Positions 4,696-49,884 of a stretch of 57,121 nt of DNA are shown one piece after another. The notes beneath the pieces are model-generated. The model ran no database searches, was not told the DNA's origin, and saw nothing but the letters and a program-made list of their open reading frames with translations. The position numbers and the translations under genes are program-made. Numbering within the stretch: the first letter of the stretch is position 1; each line of letters starts with the position of its first letter. Where the stretch lies: contig JAGAMD010000014.1 of NCBI GenBank assembly GCA_017624905.1, positions 1 through 57,121 on the forward strand, written 5' to 3'. Source of the stretch: Clostridia bacterium (lineage in GTDB: Bacteria; Bacillota; Clostridia; Oscillospirales; CAG-272).

Positions 4696-4700
4696 TACAT

Positions 4701-4749: not shown

Positions 4750-4778
4750 TTGACAATTATAATAAATAGTATTAAAAT
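4750..4778 (+). promoter_or_regulatory. Sigma-A promoter of membrane genes 4 and 5
   Basis: TTGACA at 4750-4755, 17-base spacer, TAAAAT at 4773-4778. Gene 5 has no promoter of its own visible, so this one should serve both. Confidence 0.88.
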
Positions 4779-4808
4779 ATAAGTAGTAATATAAAAGAGG
4801 TGATTTTG

Positions 4809-5192: not shown

Positions 5193-5221
5193 TAATAAAT
5201 TTATGTAAAGGAGAAAAAACT

Positions 5222-5572: not shown

Positions 5573-5582
5573 TAAACAAAAT

Positions 5583-5614
5583 AAAAAGTGCTCTGCTTTT
5601 ACAGAGCACTTTTT
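5583..5614. terminator. Bidirectional terminator between membrane gene 5 and pfkA
   Basis: AAAAAGTGCTCTG at 5583-5595 pairs with CAGAGCACTTTTT at 5602-5614 around CTTTTA; T-runs on both strands fit the convergent genes. Confidence 0.93.
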
Positions 5615-5624
5615 GTTTTGCATT

Positions 5625-6692
5625 TTATCTGTTAACACCATTGATTACTTCATACATATCTACAAAGTAGTCGTGTCTTTCCTTACAAATAGCCTTCATT
5701 TCAGCAAGCTGCTTGTCAGTAAAGCCCTCAAGGTCGTCTTCCTTTAGCTTGTTCTTATACATTCTGTCAAGAATGAGAGCAAACTTGATTTCAATAGGAA
5801 CAATTTGGTCGTGTCTTGAACAAATAACAACATCGCTAACACCCTTAAGTAGTAGCTCAACAGCCTTGTAGCCAGACTTTAAAGCAAGATTTCTGTCTAC
5901 AAGAGTAGGAATACCACCGCGAACAATGTGAGCAGGACGAACAAATCTTGTTTCAATGCCTGTTCTTTCCTCGATTTCCTTAACAAGACCTTCGCTAAAT
6001 GCAGCACCAAGACCTTCAGCAACTACAACGATAAAGCTACGTCTACCGTCAGCCCTTGCCTCATTCATCCTCTTAAACAGTGATTCTTTATCGAATGGTA
6101 TTTCTTGTACAGCAACACCAATTGCACCTAAAGCAAGACCTGTTTCAATAGCGATATAACCGGCATTTCTGCCCATAACCTCAATTACATTGCAACGTGC
6201 GTGAGATTCGCATGTATCACGAAGAGCATCGCCCATTGTAAGCACAGAGTTCATAGCTGTGTCGTAGCCAACTGTGATGTCGGATGCAGTAATATCATTA
6301 TCGATAGTACCGGTAACACCGATACAAGGGATACCTCTTATGCTAAGGTCGGTTGCACCTCTAAATGTACCGTCGCCACCAATAGCAACGATTCCATCAA
6401 TGTTGTGCTTTTTACATGTAGCGATAGCCTTTTGCATACCGGCTTCAGTCTTAAACTCGTCGCAACGGTCAGAGTAGAGGAATGTGCCACCGTGAGAAAC
6501 GATACCGGCAACATCATTTTTTGTTAAAGGACGGATTTTGTCATTGATAAGTCCGGAATAACCACCAATGATACCAACAACCTCAACTCCCTTGTCGATT
6601 GCTGCACAAGTAACACTTTTGATAACACAGTTCATACCCGGTGCATCACCGCCGGATGTTAAAATACCAATTTTTCTAAATTTAGTTTCCAT
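5625..6692 (-). CDS. pfkA: ATP-dependent 6-phosphofructokinase
   Basis: 355 residues, cytoplasmic. Phosphorylates fructose 6-phosphate to fructose 1,6-bisphosphate, the committed step of glycolysis. The nucleotide loop GGDAPGMN is at about 14-21; GGDGT at 105-109 and TGTIDND at 127-133 carry glycine at both positions that mark ATP users (PPi users have Asp and Lys). MGRNAGYIA follows. The start has AGGAGC upstream. Transcribed alone from TTGATT-N17-TAAAAT. A second PFK of the PPi type lies at 29053, so the genome keeps both kinds. Confidence 0.96.
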   Translation of the reverse strand: METKFRKIGILTSGGDAPGMNCVIKSVTCAAIDKGVEVVGIIGGYSGLINDKIRPLTKNDVAGIVSHGGTFLYSDRCDEFKTEAGMQKAIATCKKHNIDGIVAIGGDGTFRGATDLSIRGIPCIGVTGTIDNDITASDITVGYDTAMNSVLTMGDALRDTCESHARCNVIEVMGRNAGYIAIETGLALGAIGVAVQEIPFDKESLFKRMNEARADGRRSFIVVVAEGLGAAFSEGLVKEIEERTGIETRFVRPAHIVRGGIPTLVDRNLALKSGYKAVELLLKGVSDVVICSRHDQIVPIEIKFALILDRMYKNKLKEDDLEGFTDKQLAEMKAICKERHDYFVDMYEVINGVNR

Positions 6693-6733
6693 TTTAAAGC
6701 TCCTGAATTTTAAACGAAAAATTTATCCTAGTT

Positions 6734-34492: not shown

Positions 34493-35452
34493 TTAAAGTC
34501 CAAGCACTGCTGCACCGATAATACCGGCGTCGTTACCAAGCTCTGCAATTTTGATTTCTGTTTGACGGTCGCCTCTTGTGTAGGTTTCCTTAAATACAGC
34601 TTCCTTTAATGGAATAAGTAGGTTATCCTTTTCACCGCAAACACCACCACCGATTGATAGAACGTTTGGTTGGAAAATATTAATAACGTTGGAAATACCA
34701 CAAGCGAGGTAAGAAATATACTCGTCAACGATTTCCTTACCAACTGCGTCGCCTTGCTTCATAGCAGTAAACGCTACTCTTGCATTACAGTTGTCAATAT
34801 TTCCGTTTATAAGGTCCTCTATAAGTGTCTTACGACCTTCTTGTCTTGCCTTCAAAACGTGCTCCTTGGTCATATTTGTAAGACCGGTAGCTGAGCTGTA
34901 TGTTTCCCAACAGCCACGTCTGCCACAAGTACATTGCTTGCCATCCTTTTCAATAACGATGTGTCCAAGCTCGGCACCCGCGAAGTTGAATCCGGAGTAA
35001 ACCTTGCCATCAAGAACAATACCACCGCCAAGACCTGTGCCAAGTGTAATCATAACAGAATACTTAGCTCCCTTGGCTACACCTGCGATAGCCTCTGCCT
35101 TAGCAGCTGCATTTGCATCGTTTTCAATATAAACTTTTTCAATTCCTGTGTATTCCTTTAGTAGGTCTGCAATAGGGAAGTTTACAAAAGGTAAGTTGTT
35201 TGCATACTCGACAACACCGGTCTCTGAGTTGGCAGTTCCCGGAGATGCGATTCCTGCGTATGCTATATCATTAAGAGTGAGTCCGCAATCCTCAATCAAG
35301 GAGAGGCAAAGCTTGCCCATATCCTTAATGATTTCCTTGCCATCTCTGTGTGCAAGAGTAGGAACACTCTTCTTTTTAATTATTTTGTAGTCGCTGTCAA
35401 CAATGCCGGCAGCAATGTTAGTACCACCGAGGTCAATACCTAAATAATACAT
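34493..35452 (-). CDS. glk: ROK-family glucokinase
   Basis: 319 residues from ATG 35452 (MYYLGIDLGGTNI); an ATG 12 bases earlier abuts the ribosome site AAAAAGG and is less suitable. Phosphorylates glucose, possibly other hexoses. ATP site GIDLGGTN at 4-11; LGTGLGGGIVLDG near 130; the ROK zinc motif CTCGRRGCWE near 171-180 with upstream GAELGHIV His. No N-terminal helix-turn-helix, so an enzyme and not a repressor. Lies divergent from the sugar transporter locus. Confidence 0.94.
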   Translation of the reverse strand: MYYLGIDLGGTNIAAGIVDSDYKIIKKKSVPTLAHRDGKEIIKDMGKLCLSLIEDCGLTLNDIAYAGIASPGTANSETGVVEYANNLPFVNFPIADLLKEYTGIEKVYIENDANAAAKAEAIAGVAKGAKYSVMITLGTGLGGGIVLDGKVYSGFNFAGAELGHIVIEKDGKQCTCGRRGCWETYSSATGLTNMTKEHVLKARQEGRKTLIEDLINGNIDNCNARVAFTAMKQGDAVGKEIVDEYISYLACGISNVINIFQPNVLSIGGGVCGEKDNLLIPLKEAVFKETYTRGDRQTEIKIAELGNDAGIIGAAVLGL

Positions 35453-35647
35453 ACTGGTTACCATCCTTTTTGCTTTGAGTTTAGTTTGCTTTGCAAAAGC
35501 CTTAATAATTCAATTATAATCTTTAAATTCGCCAATGTCAACAATTTGAAAAAATAATTGTGAATTTTTTGAAAACTTTTTCTAAAATAAATATTAAAAA
35601 CGCTCTTTTAGTCATTATGTACATGTGCCAAAAATTTGCTTGATTTT

Positions 35648-35664
35648 TTGTGCATATTGCACAA
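35648..35664. promoter_or_regulatory. Palindrome TTGTGCATATTGCACAA, likely operator
   Basis: A perfect seven-base inverted repeat around TAT in the gap between glk (minus) and the transporter locus (plus). A word differing by one central base is found at 56753-56765. The rest of 35465-35831 shows no gene; it is AT-rich. Confidence 0.55.
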
Positions 35665-35831
35665 TTGATAAAATTATATATTATTGGCAACCAAAAACTG
35701 AAAAAAGCCTTGATTTACGTGGCTTTTCACCACTTTTTTATCTTTAAATCAGGCTATGTATTTACTTGCCCAAAGTTCTTAAAAACAAGAAATTATCACC
35801 CTTTGTGCGACTTGAATAAATACTTGTTTAA

Positions 35832-35869
35832 AAAGTCAACTTGACTTTATTTTACAGGTGTGTTAAAAT
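35832..35869 (+). promoter_or_regulatory. Sigma-A promoter of the transporter locus with operator on the -35
   Basis: TTGACT at 35841-35846, 17-base spacer, TAAAAT at 35864-35869. The -35 is one arm of a perfect palindrome, AAAGTCAA-C-TTGACTTT (35832-35848), so a bound protein would block or help polymerase. Confidence 0.75.
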
Positions 35870-35882
35870 TATACATACTAAT

Positions 35883-35934
35883 ATATACGCACACGTATAT
35901 TCAAACTTACCAAGTTGCGCTAGTTTGGTAGGTT
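35883..35934 (+). promoter_or_regulatory. Two dyads in the transporter leader
   Basis: ATATACG-CACA-CGTATAT (35883-35900) lies just after the predicted transcription start. AACTTACCAA at 35904-35913 pairs with TTGGTAGGTT at 35925-35934 (one G-U). Either could be an operator or an RNA structure. Confidence 0.55.
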
Positions 35935-35963
35935 GATTAGAACACAAAATATGGAGGTTTCTT

Positions 35964-38900
35964 ATGAGAACAAAGGCGAAAAGGCTACTTGCATTTGTTT
36001 TGTGCTTGTTAATGCTTGCTTCAACAATGGCAATACCGGCATTTGCAAAGGGTACAAGTAGTTCCGGTGGAAGCAGCTCTTCTTCCACAACATCAAGCTC
36101 CGATGTAAGTGCGATTCTCAATGCGTTGTCTTACGACGATTATGAGAAAACAGTTTTGGCTCACAGTGCTGAAACATTGTACAACGGACTCGTTGATGTA
36201 ATCAGAGTTCAGTATCCTGAGCTCAAGAGCGACGAAATCTATGCTATGGTTGATGAGGCGTACAAGGACCATAAGATAGAGCTCGTTATCAATCCGGAGG
36301 AGGGTAATGACAAGCAGTTTGGTCTTTTAGATGGCGAGTACACTGTTGGCGACACAACCGTTATACTAAAGGACGACAAGGACCGTTATTGGGAAGACTA
36401 TGCTTCAGAAAAGTATGAGTCTGAAAAATCAGATGGTATTGTTCTTGGTGCAAACGGCACTGTTACTTGGACCTTCAACCTACCTAAGGAGTATGCCGGT
36501 AACTATACAATTGAGATTACCTATGCTCAAGTTAGTGAGGAAAAATATGCTGAGCTGAATAGCACTATTGCGGGTGTTGAGAATGACAAGACCTACACAT
36601 TAGCTGACAAGCTCGGATTAAAGAAGATTACAAACAACGCTATTGAGCGTATATTCTATCTAAATGGAGAAATTCCATTTGCTGAGGCTCGTGCTCTTGT
36701 TTTGTCTAAGCTATTTACATACGACTATATAGATGATGGAAATGGCAATCTTTCATTTAAAAATGAGAAAGAGGATGGCTCAGGCGACGACATTCGTCCG
36801 GCTGTAATTCAAAAGCTTCATTGGACAACAAGTGCAATTGTTGATGCAGACGGATATAGAAATGATCCATTTGAATTCTATTTCAAGCCCGGTGAAAATA
36901 CAATTTCACTCCAAGGTGAAAGAGAAGATATGGTTATCAAATCAATCACTCTTCGCCCACTGTCAAAGGCTATTTCATATTCAGAATATCTAAAGACACA
37001 CCAAGGCAACAAGATTGACTTTGATCTTGGTATTATTGAGGCAGAGGCTCCAAATTTCGTATCCTCTGTTACAATGTATCCTGTATATGATAGAACATCT
37101 GCTATCACAAGTGGCTTGACAGGCTCACAAAGTGCAACAGCCGTTAAGTATAACACAGCAGGTAAGGAGCAATGGCAAAACGTTGGTGAATGGCTCGAGT
37201 ATCAAATCGAGGTGCCTGAAACAGGCTACTATTCACTTGCTATCAGATATAAGCAATCACTTCTTAGCGGTATGTATGTTTCAAGAAAGCTATATATCGA
37301 CGGTGAGGTGCCTTTTGCTGAGGCTGCATCACTTCGCTTCTATCATTCCAACTCATGGCAAATGTCATATTTGGGCGATGGCAAAAATGCGTACGACTTT
37401 TACCTTGAAAAGGGTGTTCATACCATTAGACTAGAGGCAACTCTTGGTGATATGGGACCACAAATTAAGCAAGTTAATGATTCACTTGCCGTTATCAATA
37501 ACTGCTATCTTGAAATTATTAAGCTAACAGGTACATCACCGGATGCTAACCGTTCATATGGCTTTACAAGAGTAATGCCACACGTTATGGAGGCTATGCT
37601 TATCGAGTCACAAAACCTTAAGAAGGTATATGACTACCTAGTTGAGCAAAATAAGATTCAAGAGGGTGGCGGTACAGGTGAAGGTGAAAAGACCGCAACC
37701 ATTAAGCAAGTTTACCAATTGCTTGAAAAAATGGCTACAAACGAGTCGGAAATTCCGGCTAACCTAGCTACATTAAAATCACAAATCGGTTCTTTGGGTA
37801 CATGGATCAATAGCGCAAAGACCCAGCCACTTCAGGTTGACTATTTCAAGCTTCAGTCATCTGATAAGGCACTACCTAAGACAGACGCTAACTTCTTCCA
37901 AGCTCTTTGGTTTGAAATTAAGCTTTTCTTTGCATCATTCGCACTTGATTATAGTGAGGATGAGGCAGCTGAGTCAGGCGAGGGCATCACAAACATCGAG
38001 GTTTGGGTTGTTACCGGTCGTGACCAAGCACAAATTATAAGAAACCTAATAGAAAATAAATTTACACCAACAGCAATGGTTGGTGACTCAAGAATTTCAG
38101 TTAGCATTAAGCTAATTTCCGGCGGTACGCTTCTTCCATCAATTATAGCCGGAGTTGGACCTGAGGTTTCACTTATGGAGGCAAGCTCTACAATTATTGA
38201 CTATGCTCTTCGTAATGCGATTAAGCCACTCAATGAGTATATAAATAATGATATTGATGCAGGTGCTCCAAATATTCTTGATGAATTCCCTGCAGCAGCA
38301 CTTGAGCCACTCACACTATATGACTTCCGTTATGGTGAGTTTGACTCGAAAAATGACGGAAATGCTCAGTGGGTTGCAGATAAGGACCTATATCGTTGGA
38401 GAGACGATGACAGAACCTCAAGCACAGTCAACTATCTAATAGATGTTAATAAGGATGCAAACGGAAATGTTGTATCCGAAAACAAATATGGATATAACTG
38501 GGAAGAGAAGAATGATAAGGGCGAGGTTGTTCGTCAAGGTATAGAAATTTACGCTTTGCCTGATTCACTTACATTCTCAATGATGTTCTACCGTAAGGAT
38601 GTTATTACATCACTTGAGCTTGATATTCCAAAAACATGGGATGATATGCTCGCTATTCTACCTATACTTCAATTTAATAATATGGAGATAGGTATTCAAA
38701 ATGATGCTTACACATTCATTTATCAAAACGGCTATGAGGCATACGCAAACAATGGTATGCAAATCAACTTTGATGATGCAGGTGTAACAAGCTCATTCAA
38801 GCAAATGTGTAACTACTACACAGAATATTCACTACCATATACATACGATTTTGCAAACCGTTTCCGTACAGGTGAAATGCCAATAGGTATTGCACCATAT

Positions 38901-39473
38901 ACAACATGTAACCAGCTATCAGTATTCGCATCTGAGCTTTCCGGCTTATGGACATTCGTTCCAATTCCGGGACAAGAGGGCGGAAACGCTAATGCGGTTG
39001 CAACAGTTACAGGTTGTGTAATGATTGACAACACCAAGAAGGGTGAGCCTGATCAAGACAAAAAGGATTTGGCAGCTTGGCAATTTATGAAATGGTACAC
39101 AGGAAATGAATTCCAATCTGACTACGCAAATGAAATCGTATCAATCCTCGGTGTTGCAGCAAGACCTGCAACAGCAAACAGAGAGGCTCTTGTTTCACTT
39201 CCATGGAACAATGAGGAATTGAAGGCTATTGAGGAGCAATTTAACAAGCTAACAGCAGTTCAAAACCATCCGGGCAGCTACTACTTGGCTCGTTATGTAA
39301 ACTTTGCATTCTTAGCAGCTTATAACGACGGTGAGGATGCAGCAAATGCACTTGCCGGATACGCAACAGACGTAAACAAGGAAATCACCAGAAGACGTGA
39401 GGAATTTGGTATGATGACCTTTGATACATACAAGGAAAAGAACCCTGACCTTGTATTAACGCCAAAAAGATAA
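35964..39473 (+). CDS. Giant solute-binding protein with carbohydrate-binding-module domains
   Basis: 1169 residues, more than twice a normal sugar-binding protein. Sec signal at 1-28 (cut after AFA) but no lipobox cysteine; a Ser/Thr/Gly linker follows. Two beta-sandwich regions, about 110-335 and 350-510; the second, with NVGEWLEYQIEVPETGYYSL and a later HTIRLEA, looks like CBM6/CBM35. Residues about 660-1165 are a family-1 solute-binding fold (NIEVWVVTGRDQAQIIRNLI, IPKTWDDMLA, FRTGEMPIGIAPY, AAWQFMKWYTGNEFQSDYA). GGAGG precedes the ATG. First gene of the uptake locus, 30 bases before the first permease. Confidence 0.88.
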   Translation: MRTKAKRLLAFVLCLLMLASTMAIPAFAKGTSSSGGSSSSSTTSSSDVSAILNALSYDDYEKTVLAHSAETLYNGLVDVIRVQYPELKSDEIYAMVDEAYKDHKIELVINPEEGNDKQFGLLDGEYTVGDTTVILKDDKDRYWEDYASEKYESEKSDGIVLGANGTVTWTFNLPKEYAGNYTIEITYAQVSEEKYAELNSTIAGVENDKTYTLADKLGLKKITNNAIERIFYLNGEIPFAEARALVLSKLFTYDYIDDGNGNLSFKNEKEDGSGDDIRPAVIQKLHWTTSAIVDADGYRNDPFEFYFKPGENTISLQGEREDMVIKSITLRPLSKAISYSEYLKTHQGNKIDFDLGIIEAEAPNFVSSVTMYPVYDRTSAITSGLTGSQSATAVKYNTAGKEQWQNVGEWLEYQIEVPETGYYSLAIRYKQSLLSGMYVSRKLYIDGEVPFAEAASLRFYHSNSWQMSYLGDGKNAYDFYLEKGVHTIRLEATLGDMGPQIKQVNDSLAVINNCYLEIIKLTGTSPDANRSYGFTRVMPHVMEAMLIESQNLKKVYDYLVEQNKIQEGGGTGEGEKTATIKQVYQLLEKMATNESEIPANLATLKSQIGSLGTWINSAKTQPLQVDYFKLQSSDKALPKTDANFFQALWFEIKLFFASFALDYSEDEAAESGEGITNIEVWVVTGRDQAQIIRNLIENKFTPTAMVGDSRISVSIKLISGGTLLPSIIAGVGPEVSLMEASSTIIDYALRNAIKPLNEYINNDIDAGAPNILDEFPAAALEPLTLYDFRYGEFDSKNDGNAQWVADKDLYRWRDDDRTSSTVNYLIDVNKDANGNVVSENKYGYNWEEKNDKGEVVRQGIEIYALPDSLTFSMMFYRKDVITSLELDIPKTWDDMLAILPILQFNNMEIGIQNDAYTFIYQNGYEAYANNGMQINFDDAGVTSSFKQMCNYYTEYSLPYTYDFANRFRTGEMPIGIAPYTTCNQLSVFASELSGLWTFVPIPGQEGGNANAVATVTGCVMIDNTKKGEPDQDKKDLAAWQFMKWYTGNEFQSDYANEIVSILGVAARPATANREALVSLPWNNEELKAIEEQFNKLTAVQNHPGSYYLARYVNFAFLAAYNDGEDAANALAGYATDVNKEITRRREEFGMMTFDTYKEKNPDLVLTPKR

Positions 39474-39503
39474 ATTCTAAAATACTATGAAGGAGAAATG
39501 TAG

Positions 39504-40544
39504 ATGAAAAAGCAAAAAGATTTGAAATCTAAAGCCGTTCAGCAAGAACAGGCTGATGCGTTACATGATGATAGTATTTTAGAAACAGATGCACAGGGAG
39601 CAGCCGTGAAAAAGAAAGCAGTGTCAAGAAAGGATATGACAATGCTTCAATGGACATGGCGTGAAATCAAGCGTAACAAAATAGCTTACGTTATGATTGC
39701 ACCATTTATGTTTGTATTCATTCTTTTCACAGTTTTCCCGGTTGTACTATCACTCGCACTCAGCTTTACAAACTTCAATATGCTCGAATTCAAGAGCGAT
39801 ATGTTTATATGGTTTGATAACTATACAAGACTTTTCTTCCAGGATGAAATATTCCTTCTTGCTTGTAAGAATACACTTATCTTCGCAGCAGTAACAGGTC
39901 CTGTATCATATATTCTATCATTCCTTGTAGCTTGGTTTATTAACGAGCTATCACCAAGAATAAGAGCTATTGTAACACTTATTTTCTATGCACCATCAAT
40001 TTCCGGTGCAGTATACCTCATCTGGGGCGTACTATTCTCAAACGACGGACAAGGTTGGGTAAATGGTACACTTATGAAGATGAACATTATCTCTACACCA
40101 ATTCTATGGTTCTACGATGAGCAATATGCAATGACACTTTGTATTGTAGTTGCTCTTTGGATGTCTCTTGGTACAGCATTCCTATCATTTATTGCAGGCT
40201 TGCAAACAATTGACAAGAGCCTATTTGAAGCGGCAGCCGTTGACGGAATCAAGAACAGATGGCAAGAGCTATGGCACATCACACTTCCAATGATGCGTCC
40301 GCAGCTTATGTTCGGTGCTGTTATGTCAATTACCGGTGCATTCGGCTTTGGTGGAGTTGTAACAGCGCTTTGTGGCTTCCCATCAGTTAACTATTCGTGT
40401 CATACGATTATGCACTGTCTAGAGGACTATGGTAACCAGCGTTGGGAGGTTGGTTATGCCTCGGCGATTGCGTTTGTACTATTCTTAATAATGATGGTTG
40501 CAAACACAATTGTAAATAAAATGCTTTCGAAGGTAGGACAATGA
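39504..40544 (+). CDS. ABC sugar permease, MalF/UgpA type (pair 1)
   Basis: 346 residues. About 65 cytoplasmic N-terminal residues, then six membrane segments between about 68 and 340. The cytoplasmic loop that docks the ATPase has the EAA pattern EAAAVDGIKNRWQELWHITLP near 238-258. Belongs to the binding-protein-dependent sugar permease family. Ribosome site AAGGAG. One base separates it from the partner permease, so they form a heterodimer. No ATPase gene is nearby; a shared MsmK-like ATPase elsewhere is likely. Confidence 0.93.
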   Translation: MKKQKDLKSKAVQQEQADALHDDSILETDAQGAAVKKKAVSRKDMTMLQWTWREIKRNKIAYVMIAPFMFVFILFTVFPVVLSLALSFTNFNMLEFKSDMFIWFDNYTRLFFQDEIFLLACKNTLIFAAVTGPVSYILSFLVAWFINELSPRIRAIVTLIFYAPSISGAVYLIWGVLFSNDGQGWVNGTLMKMNIISTPILWFYDEQYAMTLCIVVALWMSLGTAFLSFIAGLQTIDKSLFEAAAVDGIKNRWQELWHITLPMMRPQLMFGAVMSITGAFGFGGVVTALCGFPSVNYSCHTIMHCLEDYGNQRWEVGYASAIAFVLFLIMMVANTIVNKMLSKVGQ

Positions 40545-40545
40545 T

Positions 40546-41418
40546 ATGCAAAAAATGAGAGTTAGAAATCATCAAGTTGTCCTAAACCGTTCTGTCGGAG
40601 GCGACGCAGGAATATTTACCTTCCTTATTATAATGGGAGCATTTATGTTCCTACCAATGGTCTATGTAGTAATGCAGTCCTTAAAGCCTCTTGATGAGTT
40701 ATGGATGTTCCCACCGAGATTTTACGTTGTAAATCCAACACTTAAGAACTTTACAGACTTGTTCTCACTACTTAGCGATTCTTGGGTTCCGTTCTCAAGA
40801 TACATATTTAACACAGTATTTATTACAGCTGCAGGTACATTTGGTAACCTTTTACTCAGCTCCCTTGCAGCTTATGCAATTTCAAAGATTCCATTCCCTG
40901 GTAGAAAAGGTGTGTTCTGGCTAATCCAACGTTCACTTATGTTTACATCAACAGTAACAGCGATTGCCAACTTTATCACACTATCAGCACTACATCTTAT
41001 GGATAATCCATTTGCTATTATTATTCCGGCGTGGGGCTCATCAATGGGTCTTTACCTAATGAAGCAATTTATGGATTCTTCAATTTCAGACTCAGTACTT
41101 GAAAGTGCTCGTCTTGATGGATGCAGCGAATTTAAAACCTTCTGGGTAATAGCTATGCCAATGGTTAAGCCGGCTTGGTTGACACTTATTATCTATTCAT
41201 TCCAAGGACTTTGGAACACAGGTGCTTCACCATACATTTATAGTGAGCAGCTAAAGACACTTAACTACGCAATCGGACAAATCACAGCCGGCGGTATTGC
41301 TCGTGCCGGTGCGTCTGCTGCCGGTACAGTAATTATGATGCTTGTGCCAATTTTGGTATTCGTTATAACACAAAGTAACATTATCGAAACAATGGCATCA
41401 AGTGGTATGAAGGATTAA
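40546..41418 (+). CDS. ABC sugar permease, MalG/UgpE type (pair 1)
   Basis: 290 residues with six membrane segments. EAA loop reads ESARLDGCSEFKTFWVIAMP near 185-204. Early segment FLPMVYVVMQSLKPLDELW and the FPPRFYVVNPTLKNF loop are typical of MalG-type subunits. It begins one base after the stop of its MalF-type partner and ends nine bases before the Yip1 gene. Confidence 0.93.
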   Translation: MQKMRVRNHQVVLNRSVGGDAGIFTFLIIMGAFMFLPMVYVVMQSLKPLDELWMFPPRFYVVNPTLKNFTDLFSLLSDSWVPFSRYIFNTVFITAAGTFGNLLLSSLAAYAISKIPFPGRKGVFWLIQRSLMFTSTVTAIANFITLSALHLMDNPFAIIIPAWGSSMGLYLMKQFMDSSISDSVLESARLDGCSEFKTFWVIAMPMVKPAWLTLIIYSFQGLWNTGASPYIYSEQLKTLNYAIGQITAGGIARAGASAAGTVIMMLVPILVFVITQSNIIETMASSGMKD

Positions 41419-41427
41419 GGAGGAGTT

Positions 41428-43689
41428 ATGAAGAAAATAGCAAGAATAATTGCTTTTATGTTTGCTTTCGTAATGCTTCTTACTCCTATGGTAATGGCAG
41501 CTACTCCATATGAAACCTATACATACTCAATCGATGGCGAGGTTCTTGAATCTCCTGATGCGTATGTACCGGATGGAGTAACATCTATAAGCTCTGCAAC
41601 ACTCGGTCTTGAGGTTCCACTTGCATCACCATCAGACATTGAAACTGACGATGATGGTAACGTTTACATTACAGACCGTGGTAATAACAGAATAGTAATG
41701 ACCGATAAGCACTACAATCTAACAGGCATAATTGATAACTTTATCAATGGTGATGGTGTTGAGGATAGCTTCAAGGATCTATCAAGCACATTTGTAGTAA
41801 GCAGCGGTAACTATGAGGGCTTATATGTTTGTGATACAGCAAACAAAAGAATTGTAAAGTTTAAGAGAAACCAAGAGGGAACATACGAGTTCTCAAGAAC
41901 ATTTAACGAGCCACAAATCAACTTTGCAGATGAAGAGGGTAGCTATACACCATCAAGCTGTGTAGTTGATAAGCACGGTAGAATGTATGTTGCATCCTCA
42001 GGTACAACAGAGGGTATTATCGTTTTGACAGCTGATGGCGATTTTATCAACTTCATCGGTGCTCCAAAGGTTAGCGTTTCTGCCCTTCAGGCAGTAATTC
42101 AATCAGTTAACCCTTGGTCAAACGTTGAATTTACAAATATCCCTGTAACATATACAAGCCTAGAGCTTGATGAAACCTATGGCGACTTCGTATACGGTAC
42201 AATCGTATTCCCATCAGAGGATGAGAATCAACAGCTTTCACAATTAACAAGTAAAACAGACGACTATTCACCTGTTAAGCTTCTTAATGCGGGTGGTACT
42301 GATATTATGCAACGTACAGGCTTCTTCTCACCGGCAGGTGAGGTAGCGGTTGAGCTACAAACATTGCAAACATCAGCTAACAAGGATGCTCCAAAGGGCG
42401 TTTCAAGAATAGTTGACGTAACAAGCGGACCTGATGGCGTTTGGTCAATTATTGACAACAAACGTGCTAAGGTTTATACATATGACCGTTCAGGTAACCT
42501 TCTATACATCTTCGGTGATACAGGTGAGCAATTCGGTCAAATTACAAAAACATCTTCCGGTACAGGTGCACAAGCTATCAGCTATCAAACCTATACAATA
42601 GAGCAGGATGTTCTAAACGACAACGGCGAATGGGAAACCAAGGATGTTGAGGTAACAAAGCTACTTGTCCTCGATAACACAGGCTCATTCACTCCATATA
42701 AGCAAACTGACTATGCTACTGTTTTGGCTCAAGCTATCAAGCTACAAAATGCAGGTAACTTTAAGGAAGCTAAGGATGAGTGGCAAAAGGTACTTGCTTA
42801 TAACAACAACTTTGACACAGCTTACGTGGAAATGGGAAAGGTGCTATATCGCTCAGGCTCAGAGGCAGAGCTTGATACAGCTCTTAGATATTTCCAAAAC
42901 GCATACGATACTGAAAACTACGCAACAGTATTTAAGGCTATCCGTTCAAATGTAATGGAAAAATGGTTCATTCCAATGATCATTTTAATAGTTGCAGCAT
43001 TGTTCGGTGTAGTTAAGGTATTTGAATATGCAGGTAAAGTAAACAAGGCTGCCGCAACTAAGGGCGGTAAGCGTACACTCAAGGAAGAATTAACCTTCGG
43101 CTTCCACCTAATGTTCCATCCATTCGATGGCTTCTGGGATTTGAAGAAGGAAAAGCGTGGCTCAGTAAGAGCATCAATCATCTTCCTTGCAATTACAGTG
43201 GTTGCATTCTACTATCAAGGCATTGGTAAGGGCTATTACTATGCTCCACAAGGTACAAGTGCAACAATTATTTCACAAGCAGCAACCGTATTGGTTCCAT
43301 TCTTCCTATTTGTAATTTCCAACTGGTGCTTTACAACACTATTTGATGGTGAGGGTAGCTTCAAGGATATCTTTGTTGCAACATCATACTCACTATTCCC
43401 ACTTCCGGTGCTTGTAATCATCTCAACTGCACTTACACACGTATTGGTAGGAACAGAGTCACAAATTCCAACACTTATTTTAACAGTAGGTTACATTTAT
43501 ATGGCATTCCTTATCATTATCGGTATGCAGGTAACACACGATTACTCAACAGGAAAGAATATTGTAACAATAGTAGCTACAATTGCCGGTATGGTAATAA
43601 TTCTGTTTATTGTTGTACTATTTACAACACTTATTTCAAAGATGGCATCATTTGTAACAACAATTACAAGTGAATTGAGCTTAAGGTAG
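41428..43689 (+). CDS. Secreted NHL-propeller, TPR and Yip1 membrane protein
   Basis: 753 residues. Signal peptide 1-25. Residues about 60-370 hold NHL-type repeats (PSDIETDDDGNVYITDRGNNRI, SSCVVDKHGRMYVASSG, VTSGPDGVWSIIDNKRAKVY), a beta-propeller that would lie outside the cell. A TPR-like part follows (about 425-505: KLQNAGNFKEAKDEWQKVL, ALRYFQNAYDTENY). A membrane helix at about 512-534 leads to a Yip1-like four- to five-helix domain (about 560-750). A surface sensor or scaffold for the transporter is plausible, not shown. GGAGG precedes the ATG. Confidence 0.85.
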   Translation: MKKIARIIAFMFAFVMLLTPMVMAATPYETYTYSIDGEVLESPDAYVPDGVTSISSATLGLEVPLASPSDIETDDDGNVYITDRGNNRIVMTDKHYNLTGIIDNFINGDGVEDSFKDLSSTFVVSSGNYEGLYVCDTANKRIVKFKRNQEGTYEFSRTFNEPQINFADEEGSYTPSSCVVDKHGRMYVASSGTTEGIIVLTADGDFINFIGAPKVSVSALQAVIQSVNPWSNVEFTNIPVTYTSLELDETYGDFVYGTIVFPSEDENQQLSQLTSKTDDYSPVKLLNAGGTDIMQRTGFFSPAGEVAVELQTLQTSANKDAPKGVSRIVDVTSGPDGVWSIIDNKRAKVYTYDRSGNLLYIFGDTGEQFGQITKTSSGTGAQAISYQTYTIEQDVLNDNGEWETKDVEVTKLLVLDNTGSFTPYKQTDYATVLAQAIKLQNAGNFKEAKDEWQKVLAYNNNFDTAYVEMGKVLYRSGSEAELDTALRYFQNAYDTENYATVFKAIRSNVMEKWFIPMIILIVAALFGVVKVFEYAGKVNKAAATKGGKRTLKEELTFGFHLMFHPFDGFWDLKKEKRGSVRASIIFLAITVVAFYYQGIGKGYYYAPQGTSATIISQAATVLVPFFLFVISNWCFTTLFDGEGSFKDIFVATSYSLFPLPVLVIISTALTHVLVGTESQIPTLILTVGYIYMAFLIIIGMQVTHDYSTGKNIVTIVATIAGMVIILFIVVLFTTLISKMASFVTTITSELSLR

Positions 43690-43700
43690 GAGGCCGGATT

Positions 43701-46691
43701 ATGAACAAAAGAATAATTTCGGCTATCCTAGCCGTAATAACAATAATGTCGCTATTTGTTTTTCCAATAACAGTAGGTGCATCAGATGTTAATTTTATGA
43801 AGGATAAGTTCACCAGCAAGGAAGAAAAGCTTGCAACTATGTCCTATATTATGACAAGTGATGACCCTGACAATGATGGAAAGGGCGACGGAGTTCTTGA
43901 GCTATATGTTGATTCAGCCTCAGGAGAAATGGCTATTCGCAATAAGCTAACAGGTGAAATTATACTTTCAAACCCTTATAATATTAATGATGTTTTTTCA
44001 CAAACAAACACAACAGATAAGGGTATTCACCTTTCACAGGTTTATATCAATTATTTCAAAAAGTCTGCTGGAGTATCCACAATCAGCTCAATGTACAGCT
44101 ATAACGACTGCTTTGTTTATGACCAAGCAACCGTTGAAAAAACTGAAAATGGTATTCGTGTTTACTACATTCTCGGTGAGGTAAGAGGCAACTATGCCGT
44201 TCCTCTAAAGATGAGCTACTATAAGCTAAGAGAAAAGCTTCTTGAAAATGGTGTTTATAACGAAGAACCTAAATCCAGTAAAAATAAATATAATGTAGAT
44301 GAATTTATCAAAAAGAACTTCCGTATCTACGATCCATATGATGACACAAAAACTCAGTCATATAAGGACCAAATGATAGAAAAGTTCCCTGAGTGTGTTG
44401 AAACTCCATTCGTTTACCTCAATTCTTCAACTTATGCTAGTACAGATGCTATGGAGAATTTGGAGAGAGAGCTAAAGAAAGCAAATCCGGATTACTTTGT
44501 AGTGTCAAACGAGGGCGAGGAGAAAACTGAGCTTGAAAAAGATATGGAGCTACTTTGGAGTGAAGCGGACAGAGAAAAGGAACGTGGTAACTTCGAGTTA
44601 AAGGAATATCCTAACTTCTCATTTGCAGTAGAATATAACCTAACAAACGACGGACTTGATGTTATACTTGATACAAGAAGCATTTCATATGATAGAAAAG
44701 AGTACTGCCTTGCTAGTATTTCAATCCTTCCATACTTTGATGCAGCTTCAATGATAGCAGAAAACTACGACAACGGTTACTTATTCGTACCTGATGGTAG
44801 TGGTGCAATCTCAAGATTCGAGGATTTGGCAGCAGTTGGCTCTATCGGCTCATTGTCATTGTCACTTTACGGCTCTGACTATGCTTATTATCAAATCACA
44901 TCAAAGAACGCAGAAGCAGCAACAATGCCTGTTTTCGGTCTTGTAAATGAAACAAACAAGCTAAACGACACAGAAAACTATGTAAAAACACCTGCGACAG
45001 GCTTCTTCGGAATAATCGAAGAGGGCGACGCTCTTGGAGCAATTACAGCGAAGATTGAAAGAAACTATGTTTCAATCTTTCCAACATTTAAGTATGCAGA
45101 ATATGATACTTATGATATCCAAGACCTATTTACACAAAGTGCAACTGCAACAAAGCAAATTACCGTAGTTTCAAACAATTTCTATCAAGGCGATTATAGA
45201 GTAAAATATACACTTTTAGCTGATGATGAGGTTGCTAAAGCAAACGGCTTCTATGGAGCTAGCTATATTGAAATGGCTAAGCTATATAGAGAGTACCTTG
45301 GAGAAACAAGTGTAAATTCAAATGGTGAAAAAATCTTTAATAAGATTACAAATCCAAATGAAAACACAACACTTTTCCTTGAGGCTTTTGGTTCAATAAA
45401 GACAAAGGGAACATTCCTTACCTTCCCTGTAACAGTTAGCAAGGAGCTAACAACATTCGAGGACATCTTGAATATTCAAGGTGAATTGTCAAAGGATAAG
45501 ACAAATGATAAGGGAGAGGTTACTAATAAGGGCATTACAAATATTTCATTTATATTGAATGGCTTCTATAACGGTGGACTTTCCTCAACATATCCAACTA
45601 AAATCAAATGGGAAAGAGTTCTCGGTGGTAAGAAGGGCGTAAACAAGCTACTTGAAGAGGATGCAGCGAATGATCAGTTCAATGTAGTTCTCGATGTAAA
45701 CTTCTCTTACTCACAAGGCTCAAAGCTATTTGGCGGATATTCTGACAAAAAATATGCCGTTAAAACTCTTGACGACAGATATACAACAAAACGTGCATAT
45801 TATGCCGCAACTCAAACATTTGAGCGTACAAGTGGTGTAGCTGTTTCAGCCGCATCATTCGATACACTATATCAAAAGTTCTTAAAGTCAATGAGCAAGT
45901 ATGACTTTAGCTCACTTGCAACAAGAGCACTCGGCTCTGATTTGAACTCTGACTTTGATAAGGACGATTATTACACAAGAGAGGATGCAAAAAATCAAAC
46001 AGTTCTTTTCCTTGAAAAGCTAACTCACGGAGATAGAAGATTTGATATAGTCCTCAACACAGGAAACGCATATGCTATGCCTTATGCTTCATCTGTGCTT
46101 AATGCCCCACTTGATAGTAGTAAATATACAAAGACCAGCCAAGCAATACCTTTCTATGGTATGGTTTACCACGGAACAGTAGAGTTTGCCGGTGGAGCAC
46201 TTAATATGGAGGGTGATGAGGACTTTATGTTCCTTAAGGCTCTTGAAAACGGTGCAGCTCTTTACTACACAATTGCTATGAGCAACCTTGAGGCTCTCAA
46301 GTTTGACTCCGAATACAGCAAATATTATTCAGTTCAATACGACCTACTTAAGGACTCAATTATGGAAACATATAATGAGTACAACGAGCTTATGAAGGAT
46401 AAGCAAGATAAGTACATCGTAGACCACAAATTTGTAAACAATGGCACAAGTGCAGCTTGGTATACTGACAACGAGGCTTCTGTTTGGAATGTTCGTTACC
46501 AAAGCAGTGGCTCTAAGCTAAACAATTCACTTGTTGTTTATGTTGAGTATGAAAACGGAGACGGATTCTTCTTGAACTACAACAACGAGGTAGTGTTCAT
46601 TGACGCCGAGGTTCAAAATGAAAACGGCACAACATCTATTTTAACAATCAAAATCCCGGCTATGGGATATCACGTACACACTGCTAAATAA
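43701..46691 (+). CDS. Secreted DUF5696-type protein, possible glycan-active enzyme
   Basis: 996 residues with a signal peptide (1-27, cut near VGA) and no lipobox or C-terminal anchor. Matches in layout the DUF5696 proteins seen beside such transporters. The middle (about 540-880) has an order of strands and helices like a TIM barrel (TNISFILNGFYNGGL near 613, QFNVVLDVNFSYS near 660, FDIVLNTGNAYAMPYAS near 780). The end has VVYVEYENGDGFFLNYNNE, resembling C-terminal sandwiches of glycoside hydrolases. No catalytic pair can be assigned with confidence. Eleven bases from its neighbours on both sides. Confidence 0.75.
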   Translation: MNKRIISAILAVITIMSLFVFPITVGASDVNFMKDKFTSKEEKLATMSYIMTSDDPDNDGKGDGVLELYVDSASGEMAIRNKLTGEIILSNPYNINDVFSQTNTTDKGIHLSQVYINYFKKSAGVSTISSMYSYNDCFVYDQATVEKTENGIRVYYILGEVRGNYAVPLKMSYYKLREKLLENGVYNEEPKSSKNKYNVDEFIKKNFRIYDPYDDTKTQSYKDQMIEKFPECVETPFVYLNSSTYASTDAMENLERELKKANPDYFVVSNEGEEKTELEKDMELLWSEADREKERGNFELKEYPNFSFAVEYNLTNDGLDVILDTRSISYDRKEYCLASISILPYFDAASMIAENYDNGYLFVPDGSGAISRFEDLAAVGSIGSLSLSLYGSDYAYYQITSKNAEAATMPVFGLVNETNKLNDTENYVKTPATGFFGIIEEGDALGAITAKIERNYVSIFPTFKYAEYDTYDIQDLFTQSATATKQITVVSNNFYQGDYRVKYTLLADDEVAKANGFYGASYIEMAKLYREYLGETSVNSNGEKIFNKITNPNENTTLFLEAFGSIKTKGTFLTFPVTVSKELTTFEDILNIQGELSKDKTNDKGEVTNKGITNISFILNGFYNGGLSSTYPTKIKWERVLGGKKGVNKLLEEDAANDQFNVVLDVNFSYSQGSKLFGGYSDKKYAVKTLDDRYTTKRAYYAATQTFERTSGVAVSAASFDTLYQKFLKSMSKYDFSSLATRALGSDLNSDFDKDDYYTREDAKNQTVLFLEKLTHGDRRFDIVLNTGNAYAMPYASSVLNAPLDSSKYTKTSQAIPFYGMVYHGTVEFAGGALNMEGDEDFMFLKALENGAALYYTIAMSNLEALKFDSEYSKYYSVQYDLLKDSIMETYNEYNELMKDKQDKYIVDHKFVNNGTSAAWYTDNEASVWNVRYQSSGSKLNNSLVVYVEYENGDGFFLNYNNEVVFIDAEVQNENGTTSILTIKIPAMGYHVHTAK

Positions 46692-46702
46692 GGAGGCTTG
46701 CT

Positions 46703-47827
46703 ATGAATACTAAATATAAAACAAGATTTAATGCGACCTCCTTTGATAGCGAGGCAAACGTATATCAAACATCACCTCAACCAAAGCCAATTGAAGAGGT
46801 AGAGGTGGTTGAAGAGGTTGTAGTTGAGGAGTCTGTTCAACAAGCAGCAGCTCCTGTAATCGACACAACACCGGACTATGTTGCTCCCGTACGTAAAAAA
46901 CGCTTTAGACTTTCACTTAAGAGCAAAAAAGCACTTTCGGGATGGTTGTTCTGCTTACCATTTGTTCTTGGTATAATAGGCATTTATATTCCTATTATAT
47001 ATGAATCAATAAAGGTTTCCTTCTTTGGTGAGCAAGGAACAAGCGAAGTCTTCAGCTTCAGCAACTACATTCACGTATTTACTGAAACAGGATTTTCAAC
47101 AACAATTGTACACGCCGTAAGAGACCTTATAATTCAAATTCCTGCAATTGTAGTGTTCTCACTATTTATGGCTATTATTCTTAACCAAAAGATGGCAGGT
47201 CGTACATTCTTCCGTGCTATATTCTTCCTACCGGTAATCCTTTCAACAGGTATTATTGACGCACTTGACGCTCAAATGACAGTTGCAGACGCACTTGAAA
47301 ACGCAGGTGGCGGAGTTGACACCAACTCAGGAGAGGCAGCAGGGGGACTCGTATCAGCTCTTGATATGCAAGCACTGCTATCGAATGTAAACCTAGAAAT
47401 CAAGCTGGGTGATACAACCTTTAACCTAGTTGATACAGTTACACTTCTAATTAACAATATCTTTAATATTGTTAGCCGTTCAGGCGTACAAATGCTAATC
47501 TTCCTATCAGGTCTACAATCTATTTCACCATCGATTTATGAGTCCTGCCAAATGGAAGGTGCAACTGCTTGGGAAACATTCTGGAAAATTACTCTTCCAA
47601 TGATCAGCCCAATGATTCTTGTAAACTCGATTTATACAGTCGTTGACCTCTTTACAGCAGCCGACAACCGTGTAATGCAAGGCTTACTTGGCTATGGTGG
47701 CGAGTTCTTGAAGAACAGAGGCTATTATAGTGCGGCAATTTGGGTGTATATCCTTTTGGTACTTGTTGTAATTGTTGTTATTACACTACTTCTGAGAACG
47801 GTAGTATTCTACCAAAGAAGAGATTAA
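46703..47827 (+). CDS. ABC sugar permease, MalF type (pair 2), extended
   Basis: 374 residues. An unusually long acidic N-terminus (about 1-75, with EEVEVVEEVVVEESVQ) precedes the first membrane segment. Six membrane segments follow. Between segments 3 and 4, about residues 190-255, there is an extracellular insert (QMTVADALENAGGGVDTNSG) absent from pair 1. EAA loop ESCQMEGATAWETFWKITLP near 280-299. GGAGG precedes the ATG. With the next gene it forms a second permease pair. Confidence 0.9.
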   Translation: MNTKYKTRFNATSFDSEANVYQTSPQPKPIEEVEVVEEVVVEESVQQAAAPVIDTTPDYVAPVRKKRFRLSLKSKKALSGWLFCLPFVLGIIGIYIPIIYESIKVSFFGEQGTSEVFSFSNYIHVFTETGFSTTIVHAVRDLIIQIPAIVVFSLFMAIILNQKMAGRTFFRAIFFLPVILSTGIIDALDAQMTVADALENAGGGVDTNSGEAAGGLVSALDMQALLSNVNLEIKLGDTTFNLVDTVTLLINNIFNIVSRSGVQMLIFLSGLQSISPSIYESCQMEGATAWETFWKITLPMISPMILVNSIYTVVDLFTAADNRVMQGLLGYGGEFLKNRGYYSAAIWVYILLVLVVIVVITLLLRTVVFYQRRD

Positions 47828-47839
47828 GGAGGTGCTATA

Positions 47840-48925
47840 ATGGATAATACAGTAAAAGTAAAAAGAGAAACCAAAAACAAAATCCGTGTAGATTTTGAAA
47901 GAGCACCACTTAAGGAAAGACTAAAACAAAAGTTTTTGTCTATGAACTTCTTAAAGAAGGTAGTATTTGTAATATTTAGAACAGTATTGCTAATAGGTAT
48001 TACATATGTAATTTTGTTCACATACATCACAAAGATTTTCTCGTCAATAAAGTCTGTTAGTGACTTTAAGGATGCAACAGTAATGTTGATTTCTAAAAAT
48101 CCAACACATATTCAGTACTTGTACATATTGACAGAAAACCATTATTTAAAGGCACTTATAACAACATTTTTAGTATCGCTTAGCGTAGCGTTTATTCAAA
48201 CCTTAGTTTGTGCACTTGTTGCGTATGGTTTGGCTAAGTTTAAGTTTAAGGGCAACAGCATAGTTTTTGCTATGGTTATTGTAACGCTCCTTATACCACA
48301 AGAGGCGTTCAAGAACTCAATCGGTTCATTCTTTAGACAAATCACAATCTTTGACACAACGCATAATCCAATAAGCTTTGTCTTAGATTTGCTGCAAGAT
48401 TGGTTCCAAATCTTTGGACCTACCGGTTCAGTTGAAAGCTCAGGCTTTGTAAACTCTATAATTCCGCTATATATCTTGTCAATCTTTGGACTTGGCTTTA
48501 AAAATGGTTTGTTTATCTTTATGCTAAGACAGTTCTTCAAGGGCGTTCCCGACGAGCTTGAGGAGTCAGCATTTGTTGATGGCTCAAGCACCTTGCGTAC
48601 ATTCTTTAGCATAATCATTCCTATTTCAGTACCAATGCTTATAACAGTATTTATATTTGCATTCTCATGGCAATGGACAGATGACTTCTATACCGGCTCA
48701 TCATTCTTCAACGCCGGTGAGTCAACCTTGACCTTTATGAAGGATATAGCTGTTACACCACCATCAATTCAAAAATTGATAGATGGAGAAACGGTTGCAA
48801 ACGCATACAAGGTAGCCGTTACAGGAACAGCATCTATCCTAATTGCACTACCTCTTATCATCGCATACATCTTCCTACAAAGACGTATTGTTGAGGGCGT
48901 AGAGAGAAGTGGTATTGTAGGATAA
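47840..48925 (+). CDS. ABC sugar permease, MalG type (pair 2), extended
   Basis: 361 residues, longer than the usual 270-290. Six membrane segments; the EAA loop reads ESAFVDGSSTLRTFFSIIIP near 240-259. An extra loop after the second or third segment (about 145-200, with FFRQITIFDTTHNP and FGPTGSVESSG) accounts for the length, as in its partner. AAGGAGG precedes the ATG by seven bases. Last gene of the locus. Confidence 0.9.
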   Translation: MDNTVKVKRETKNKIRVDFERAPLKERLKQKFLSMNFLKKVVFVIFRTVLLIGITYVILFTYITKIFSSIKSVSDFKDATVMLISKNPTHIQYLYILTENHYLKALITTFLVSLSVAFIQTLVCALVAYGLAKFKFKGNSIVFAMVIVTLLIPQEAFKNSIGSFFRQITIFDTTHNPISFVLDLLQDWFQIFGPTGSVESSGFVNSIIPLYILSIFGLGFKNGLFIFMLRQFFKGVPDELEESAFVDGSSTLRTFFSIIIPISVPMLITVFIFAFSWQWTDDFYTGSSFFNAGESTLTFMKDIAVTPPSIQKLIDGETVANAYKVAVTGTASILIALPLIIAYIFLQRRIVEGVERSGIVG

Positions 48926-49069: not shown

Positions 49070-49098
49070 TTGACAACTAGTCTTCAATTTGATATAAT
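49070..49098 (+). promoter_or_regulatory. Perfect-consensus sigma-A promoter
   Basis: TTGACA at 49070-49075, 17-base spacer, TATAAT at 49093-49098, the exact consensus, for the 80-residue gene. Confidence 0.93.
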
Positions 49099-49147: not shown

Positions 49148-49390
49148 ATGAAATACGTTTCACCAATCTTTGAAGTTGTAGCACTTGAGACTAAAGACAT
49201 TATCTGTGCTTCAGCTACAAATCCTCTTGTTACACCAGGTGTAGTTTACAAGGGTAATGACAATGCTGCTATTGAAGCTGCACAAAATGCTCAGCTCATC
49301 AAAGAAGAAGATGCTGAGACAGGCGAATTAAAGACTACTGGTGTATCAGTATCAGTAAGCTTTAACAACCTATTTAAATCAGGTAATTGA
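49148..49390 (+). CDS. Small protein with MKYVSP-type leader, function unknown
   Basis: 80 residues. The start MKYVSPIFEVVALETKDIIC resembles the N-terminus of many short clostridial proteins (MKYxxPxxExxxxExxDII) of unknown role; this comparison is from memory. The rest is polar, ends VSVSFNNLFKSGN, and has one cysteine. No signal peptide or membrane helix. A consensus promoter, AAGGAG ribosome site and strong terminator suggest high expression. It might be a peptide precursor, but no modifying or export enzyme is near. Confidence 0.8.
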   Translation: MKYVSPIFEVVALETKDIICASATNPLVTPGVVYKGNDNAAIEAAQNAQLIKEEDAETGELKTTGVSVSVSFNNLFKSGN

Positions 49391-49540: not shown

Positions 49541-49572
49541 AAAAAAGACGGCACATAATAAAGTACCGTCTT
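49541..49572 (-). terminator. Duplicated copy of the asd terminator
   Basis: AAGACGGCAC...GTACCGTCTT, the same hairpin as at 49856-49884 but with three extra loop bases (ATA). Confidence 0.8.
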
Positions 49573-49855: not shown

Positions 49856-49884
49856 ATAAAAGACGGCACATAAAGTACCGTCTT
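49856..49884 (-). terminator. Terminator of the hom-lysC-asd operon
   Basis: On the minus strand AAGACGG-TAC...GTG-CCGTCTT (49860-49884, one mismatch) followed by TTTATT. Confidence 0.82.

What the first reader, a model, noticed from the sequence alone, without database searches (positions are those of the whole stretch)
35964..48925. Two-pair ABC uptake locus with secreted accessory proteins and no ATPase
One solute-binding protein, two complete MalF/MalG-type pairs (the second with long inserts), a propeller/TPR/Yip1 protein and a DUF5696 protein are packed within about 30 bases of each other. Two permease pairs for one binding protein and two extracellular accessories go beyond a standard sugar transporter. 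It could be a glycan capture, processing and import machine analogous in purpose to Sus systems but ABC-based.
Basis: partly seen in the sequence, partly recalled or inferred. Interest (0 to 1): 0.7.

Follow-up and report, generated by a model that had tools for sequence, protein, structure and literature searches.

The report
Two-transporter sugar-uptake gene cluster
Seven adjacent genes of a gut clostridium encode two sugar importers plus two helper proteins; the same set, in the same order, is kept in many Firmicutes and resembles the xylan-uptake genes of heat-loving plant degraders, but the work of the helpers is still unknown.

Summary
The seven genes are real, tightly packed and correctly placed. 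Their order (large SBP, MalF1, MalG1, NHL/TPR/Yip1, DUF5696, MalF2, MalG2) is complete in 19 of 22 stretches from the window's genus (the other 3 are cut by contig ends) and in 33 of 60 stretches from its order and phylum; 5 more have the two blocks permuted. Block A is large SBP and pair 1; block B is NHL/TPR/Yip1, DUF5696 and pair 2. B also occurs without A nearby, mostly with an ordinary SBP. In 398 phylum genomes, the 37 with full DUF5696 all also have the large SBP and the NHL protein. The printed order of the Caldicellulosiruptor bescii xylan locus, xloEFG-X-GH129-axoFGE, fits this layout. Best reading: two CUT1 oligosaccharide importers, an unlinked MsmX-type ATPase, and accessories belonging to pair 2. 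'One SBP for two pairs' holds locally, but 22 of 29 genus genomes match an ordinary-SBP profile elsewhere; 14 such stretches inspected have no permease, 7 have a GH36 gene. DUF5696 is remotely GH129-like; activity and substrate are unknown.

The parts
35964..39473 (+). Large SBP (1169 aa): N-terminal hydrophobic signal or anchor, CBM35-like middle, SBP domain at the C-terminal end; block A
39504..40544 (+). MalF1 permease (346 aa); block A
40546..41418 (+). MalG1 permease (290 aa); block A; the most conserved of the seven in the genus
41428..43689 (+). NHL propeller / TPR / Yip1 membrane protein (753 aa); block B; split into two neighbouring genes in 25 of 78 stretches
43701..46691 (+). DUF5696 protein (996 aa) with N-terminal hydrophobic segment, remotely GH129-like; block B
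46703..47827 (+). MalF2 permease (374 aa) with N-terminal extension; block B
47840..48925 (+). MalG2 permease (361 aa) with enlarged loops after hydrophobic segments 3 and 5; block B
34493..35464 (-). Divergent ROK-family gene (323 aa), a conserved neighbour, not shown to be part of the system
   Evidence: same neighbour in 12 of 19 genus stretches, the other 7 ending within 0.4 kb of the SBP or not reaching it

Best explanation
The locus encodes two CUT1-type ABC oligosaccharide importers in one apparent operon. Importer A: the large SBP with its CBM35-like domain plus MalF1-MalG1. Importer B: MalF2-MalG2 with two accessories of its own, a membrane protein with an NHL propeller and TPR outside and a Yip1 membrane domain, and the GH129-like DUF5696 protein at the outer face. 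Both are powered by the MsmX-type ATPase encoded elsewhere. Proposed mechanism: DUF5696 and the NHL/TPR protein hold or present a glycan near the enlarged MalG2 loops while SBPs deliver oligosaccharides to the permeases. In many Firmicutes importer B has an ordinary SBP nearby; in this genus that SBP is not in the operon, and pair 2 is served by scattered SBPs or, where none is found (as in the window's held genome), perhaps by the large SBP. Shown: gene content, order, modularity, genome-level co-occurrence, an unlinked ATPase gene, unlinked SBPs in relatives. Inferred: import, outer location, the presenting role, which SBP serves which pair, which ATPase serves them, and the substrate.
For: Order kept in 19 of 22 genus and 33 of 60 order and phylum stretches, 5 more permuted. 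Pair 1 and pair 2 are separate clades, 24 + 24 proteins. Block B without A within the stretch in 14 of 47 phylum stretches (2 of these, L112 and L128, are cut by a contig end at B), 11 of them with an ordinary SBP. 9 of 10 such SBPs tested match SBP_bac_1. Co-occurrence 37 of 37 genomes, adjacent in 35 of 37. One ATPase over the NF008653 cut-off in the held genome, orthologue in 23 of 29 genus genomes, closest solved chains 7x0q and MsmX. C. bescii order xloEFG-X-GH129-axoFGE, xylan-induced, MsmK needed for oligo- and polysaccharides (PMC8579813 passages). Carbohydrate-active genes beside several relatives' loci.
Against: Window and genus lack the linked SBP of pair 2 (0 of 22). The ATPase orthologue was not found in 6 of 29 genus genomes, among them G018 (96% complete) and G003 (90%), which have the complete seven genes. 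My strict EAA pattern found only 27 of 60 MalF1 and 49 of 78 MalF2 (MalG1 57 of 60, MalG2 68 of 77). No carbohydrate enzyme next to the window locus was recognised. In L066 pair 2 does not follow DUF5696. No direct evidence on substrate, transport or complex formation; no structure prediction.
Confidence: 0.6

Rival explanations
1. One reading: the one large SBP feeds both permease pairs and the seven proteins form a single capture, processing and import machine.
For: In the held part of the window's genome the only other SBP_bac_1 match lies with a PotA-like ATPase and permeases on contig C13; the ordinary-SBP profile finds none there, nor in G003, G004, G007, G009, G021, G022. A and B co-occur in 37 of 37 genomes.
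Against: Ordinary SBPs lie near pair 2 in most phylum stretches; 22 of 29 genus genomes match the ordinary-SBP profile elsewhere; the profile is weak (genus hits of about 20-93 bits) and the window's genome is 75% complete, so absence is not proven.
Confidence: 0.15
2. The locus serves the cell's own envelope or surface polysaccharide (recycling or sensing) rather than food uptake.
For: One conserved locus among housekeeping genes in the genus, with no GH recognised next to it.
Against: Relatives have glycoside hydrolase or lyase genes next to it, and the C. bescii operon of the same order is xylan-induced.
Confidence: 0.1
3. Pair 2 with its accessories is no transporter but a sensor or regulator of importer A.
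For: NHL/TPR/Yip1 and DUF5696 have no known transport role; in the genus block B has no linked SBP; B never occurs in a sampled genome without A.
Against: B without A nearby usually has an ordinary SBP (11 of 14); the window's pair 2 proteins carry EAA-type motifs.
Confidence: 0.08

Closest known systems
Xylan degradation locus of Anaerocellum (Caldicellulosiruptor) bescii, xloEFG-X-GH129-axoFGE (Athe_0174-0185), and its C. saccharolyticus counterpart (Csac_2412, Csac_2417-2419)
   Different: The window lacks the second SBP (axoE) and the xylanase genes; the homology to named C. bescii proteins was not tested by sequence.
MsmX-dependent CUT1 importers of Bacillus subtilis (AraNPQ, YtcQP-YteP, YesOPQ)
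   Same: SBP plus two MalFG-type permeases without their own ATPase; a shared unlinked MsmX-type ATPase (PMC5730181 passages).
   Different: One permease pair per system there; no NHL/TPR/Yip1 or DUF5696 partner is named in the passages seen.
GH129 and GH129-like glycosidases (NagBb 5wzn; DagB 5opq)
   Same: Remote sequence match of the DUF5696 profile (E 1.9e-7 and 7.5e-10).
   Different: No Pfam GH family is matched by 9 DUF5696 proteins at E up to 10; the position of NagBb Asp330 (number recalled) is Asp in 1 of 24.
Sus-type glycan uptake of Bacteroidetes
   Same: At most the purpose: capture and import of glycans with surface proteins.
   Different: No SusC/SusD-type protein among the seven; ABC-type. 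Sus traits are recalled.

Membership tests
CUT1 ABC importer | sugar-type solute-binding protein | tested here: met
   SBP_bac_8 41.3 bits; profile matches sugar SBPs, best 5ysb E 2.4e-31
CUT1 ABC importer | two MalFG-type permeases with EAA motif | tested here: met
   all four window permeases; family-wide by my strict pattern MalF1 27 of 60, MalF2 49 of 78, MalG1 57 of 60, MalG2 68 of 77
CUT1 ABC importer | MalK/MsmX-type ATPase | tested here: inconclusive
   unlinked gene over the NF008653 cut-off in the held genome; that it serves these permeases is inferred; orthologue not found in 6 of 29 genus genomes
CUT1 ABC importer | imports a sugar | not testable with these tools
   needs growth or transport assays
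Caldicellulosiruptor xylan-locus type (xloEFG-X-GH129-axoFGE) | gene order | tested here: inconclusive
   fits the printed order and stretch L135; no sequence comparison with named C. bescii genes
Caldicellulosiruptor xylan-locus type (xloEFG-X-GH129-axoFGE) | second SBP (axoE) next to pair 2 | tested here: not met
   absent from the window and from 0 of 22 genus stretches present
Caldicellulosiruptor xylan-locus type (xloEFG-X-GH129-axoFGE) | xylanase genes in the operon | tested here: not met
   flanking genes are ROK and RecG upstream and a small ORF, asd and lysC downstream (RecG, asd, lysC by my reading)
GH129 | sequence relation | tested here: met
   profile against 5wzn E 1.9e-7; remote only
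GH129 | both catalytic residues of NagBb | tested here: inconclusive
   position of Asp330 (recalled) is Asp in 1 and Glu in 4 of 24; the place of Asp435 lies outside the aligned part
GH129 | glycosidase activity | not testable with these tools
   needs an assay
Sus system | SusC/SusD pair | tested here: not met
   none of the seven proteins matches such a family

The most novel reading that the evidence does not exclude
A widespread Firmicutes glycan-uptake complex in which two always co-occurring ABC permease pairs work with a membrane-anchored NHL/TPR/Yip1 scaffold and a catalytically altered GH129-like glycan-presenting protein, and which in the window's genus acts as a permease hub for scattered binding proteins that have no permeases of their own.
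Probability: 0.3. Interest if true: 0.75.

Novelty: new variant of a known kind. Interest (0 to 1): 0.5.

Why it matters
Gram-positive oligosaccharide uptake is usually pictured as one SBP, two permeases and a shared ATPase. Here two permease pairs and two uncharacterised accessories are kept together in 20 genera and 16 families within a sample of 398 phylum genomes. If the accessories take part in uptake, Gram-positives would have a defined multi-protein glycan-acquisition assembly, and C. bescii, in which msmK and transporter deletions have been made (passages), would let one test it directly.

Tried and rejected
Rejected: the missing ATPase as a special trait (unlinked MsmX-type gene). Rejected: pair 2 as a local duplicate of pair 1 (separate clades; the MalF tree is the quick version because the careful search did not finish). 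Overturned: 'no second SBP in the genus', which PF01547 had suggested for several of 8 genomes and which the ordinary-SBP profile contradicted. Not used as evidence: a crude lipobox pattern (large SBP 4 of 58, NHL/Yip1 5 of 72, DUF5696 12 of 79, ordinary SBP 6 of 16). Promoter-like sites in 35400-36050: 5 found, 2.7 expected. Rfam at gathering thresholds and tRNA scans of the window: nothing. Papers, all in one open-access library: DUF5696 0 papers; 'YIP1 family protein' with 'solute-binding protein' 0; Yip1 with GH129 0; PMC10318527 held none of the terms tried; some searches gave listings from which I opened only the papers cited.

Rows dropped or not taken: L071 (G037, weak hit, no module gene found) and L073 (G010, second, weak hit) were left out of the order count; G005's fragment (L029) was not enlarged; G008 had no DUF5696 match. 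Of 55 strong non-own phylum hits, 49 were fetched. L072 and L074 are two contigs of one genome (G006). In one search, five genomes (G044, G091, G129, G163, G193) matched only in the SBP domain with frames of 432-453 aa and were left out of the large-SBP count; G116 and G139 are partial matches and were kept. Only 2-3 candidates per genome were scored, so copy numbers are lower bounds. In one search an ordinary SBP was counted from 120 bits up, on the same strand, within the fetched stretch.

Full report
WHAT IS THERE. The seven genes lie on the + strand at 35964-48925 with gaps of 1 to 30 bases. Families: an SBP with a CBM35 match under cut-off, four BPD_transp_1 permeases, an NHL/TPR/Yip1 protein (TPR under cut-off) and a DUF5696 protein. 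Upstream and divergent is a ROK-family gene, then a gene I read as RecG. Downstream is an 80-aa ORF, then genes I read as asd and lysC from the translations, and homoserine dehydrogenase and threonine synthase. The window is a 57-kb contig of a genome held at 75% completeness, with one DUF5696 match.

CONSERVATION OF ORDER. Profiles of the seven proteins, built mostly from genus and order members, were run on six-frame translations of the fetched stretches and the orders were counted. Genus, 22 stretches with the window: 19 complete in the same order, 3 cut by contig ends, 0 with a linked ordinary SBP. Order, 13 stretches (8 genomes, 6 stretches from G032 alone): 10 complete, 1 of these with an ordinary SBP; 3 partial, of which L062 and L067 are cut by contig ends and L066 has another arrangement, pair 2 not following DUF5696. 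Phylum, 47 stretches: 23 complete (19 with an ordinary SBP), 5 with the blocks permuted (all 5 with one), 14 with block B and no block A in the stretch (11 with one; L112 and L128 are cut at B), 5 other, of which L124, L148, L151 and L153 are cut by contig ends. So the set consists of block A (large SBP, MalF1, MalG1) and block B (NHL/TPR/Yip1, DUF5696, MalF2, MalG2). The NHL/TPR and Yip1 parts give two neighbouring matches in 25 of 78 stretches and one in 53.

CO-OCCURRENCE. Of 398 phylum genomes, 46 match DUF5696 at E <= 0.001 and 39 over the family cut-off; 37, the window's own included, have long strong matches, the others short weak ones. All 37 have the large SBP and the NHL protein. The large SBP alone is in 3 more (G116, G140, G190), the NHL protein in 1 more (G279, partial). 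Fisher p is 5e-49 and 2e-51, but genomes are related: the 37 fall into 20 genera and 16 families. In 35 of 37 a large SBP lies within 9 kb of an NHL match; in G276 and G302 they are on different contigs. In 18-19 genus stretches the median identity to the window is 90% for MalG1, 79% MalF1, 62% MalG2, 59% MalF2, 59% NHL/Yip1, 49% SBP and 43% DUF5696.

TWO PAIRS, NOT A LOCAL DUPLICATE. In trees of 24 + 24 proteins MalG1 and MalG2 part with 100/100 support, and MalF1 and MalF2 with SH-aLRT 100 in a quick tree. MalG2 carries extra residues after hydrophobic segments 3 and 5; by the recalled topology of MalG these are outside loops. All four window permeases have an EAA-type motif; over the family my strict pattern found it in MalF1 27 of 60, MalF2 49 of 78, MalG1 57 of 60 and MalG2 68 of 77.

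ATPASE AND OTHER TRANSPORT GENES. The held genome has one ATPase over the NF008653 cut-off (483 bits), on contig C27, between genes I read as tex and a Gfo/Idh-type oxidoreductase. Its orthologue (82-98% identity, some partial) is in 23 of 29 genus genomes at E <= 1e-110, the window's own included; it was not found in G003, G005, G006, G008, G016 and G018, although G018 is 96% and G003 90% complete and both have the seven genes. Of 5 genomes tested with the family model 4 were over the cut-off, G018 not. Closest solved chains are 7x0q and MsmX 6yir. PF00528 finds 11 permease matches, four in the window; the other seven lie on four other contigs and I read them as other transporter types from their context, without a test. 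PF01547 finds the window SBP and one on C13 beside an ATPase and permeases.

SECOND SBP. A profile of 14 ordinary SBPs linked to block B matches 22 of 29 genus genomes at E <= 0.001, but not the window's own, G003, G004, G007, G009, G021 or G022; some matches are weak (G005, 19 bits). The profile is not very sensitive, so absence is not proven. I fetched 14 of the matched places from 12 genomes. By the profiles none of the 14 stretches (13-19 kb) has a MalF- or MalG-like gene; 13 have an ORF labelled as ordinary SBP, L172 none. In L169 the start of the seven-gene locus's own SBP lies at the edge of the same stretch, and in G020 both are on one contig about 40 kb apart, so 'unlinked' is not always far. 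A GH36 melibiase lies within about 1 kb of the SBP in 7 of 14 stretches: L160, L161, L162, L164, L165, L170, L171 (20 chosen neighbours and SBPs were scanned, not all). So relatives have SBPs without a neighbouring permease, for which the seven-gene locus is a candidate partner. For the window's species this is open.

WHAT THE PARTS MAY DO. Large SBP: its end resembles Lin1841 (5ysb, E 2.4e-31; a beta-1,2-gluco-oligosaccharide binder by recall) and other sugar SBPs, its middle a part of a cycloisomaltooligosaccharide glucanotransferase (5x7g, E 1.7e-10). NHL/TPR/Yip1: the profile matches NHL propellers and TPRs; hydrophobic segments at the very start and from residue 507 on fit an outside first part and a membrane end. 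DUF5696: the profile matches DagB-type chains (E 7e-10) and GH129 NagBb (5wzn, E 1.9e-7); Pfam gives no GH family for 9 members at E up to 10. The aligned position of NagBb Asp330 (number recalled) is Asp in 1 and Glu in 4 of 24. No acidic column is invariant; Glu849 is kept in 23 and Asp751 in 19 of 24. PMC5698469 (passages) says that of two NagBb catalytic residues only Asp435 is kept in DagB, an active enzyme, so the loss of one does not exclude activity here.

LITERATURE. PMC8579813 (passages) prints the C. [quoted passage not shown] PMC12285236 (passages) gives the XynR operator of that locus. PMC5658599 (passages) names Csac_2412 and Csac_2417-2419 as its transporters and XynF as GH43-CBM22-GH43-CBM6. 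PMC12838199 (passages) and PMC5730181 (passages) describe shared MsmK and MsmX ATPases; PMC11466899 (passages) lists MsmX systems of B. subtilis; PMC8106489 (one passage) describes NagBb.

NEIGHBOURING ENZYMES IN RELATIVES. Of 10 neighbours that I chose: pectate lyase, GH43, GH26 with CBM27, GH30, a rhamnosidase-type, a GH2 mannosidase-like and a GH106-like protein; a ricin-lectin protein; one GH14 match under cut-off; one without a match. They were picked by eye, so this is no rate.

VERDICT. Real and widely conserved; best read as two CUT1 importers with two accessories tied to the second. 'One SBP, two pairs' holds locally and is not excluded, but is not the rule of the family. A new variant of a known kind, with open and testable roles for the accessories.

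Noticed in passing
window 49148-49390 (+): An 80-aa ORF right after the locus with a perfect TTGACA-17-TATAAT match upstream at 49070-49098; small ORFs at the same place in L041, L042 and L043 (there on the strand of the locus in L041, not compared by sequence).
   Followed up: partly
L159-L171, e.g. L161 6477-8030, L167 6104-9559, L168 5349-10526, L166 5439-9260: Genus relatives carry SBPs without a neighbouring permease, in tandem (2 in L167, 3 in L168) or, in L166, two SBP-like parts in one 1273-aa ORF with dockerin-like repeats at its end (by my reading); 7 of 14 stretches have GH36 beside them.
   Followed up: partly
L040 5888-8185; L154-L157: The MsmX-type ATPase gene sits between genes I read as tex and a Gfo/Idh oxidoreductase in the window's genome and in four relatives.
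   Followed up: partly
window 21814-23550 (+): A 578-aa protein with a weak-looking but over-cut-off Melibiase (GH36) match of 54.6 bits and GH31-type matches.
   Followed up: no
window 49545-49572 and 49860-49884 (-): Two nearly identical terminator-like hairpins about 300 bases apart.
   Followed up: no
L051 14432, L052 14386, L053 147, L054 15126, L046 14353: Large secreted-looking proteins (675-1125 aa) directly downstream of MalG2 in several genus members, some with leucine-rich-like repeats by my reading; absent at that place in the window.
   Followed up: no
L136 about 3862-6720: MalG1 is in two pieces with a 442-aa ORF on the other strand between them, perhaps a mobile element.
   Followed up: no
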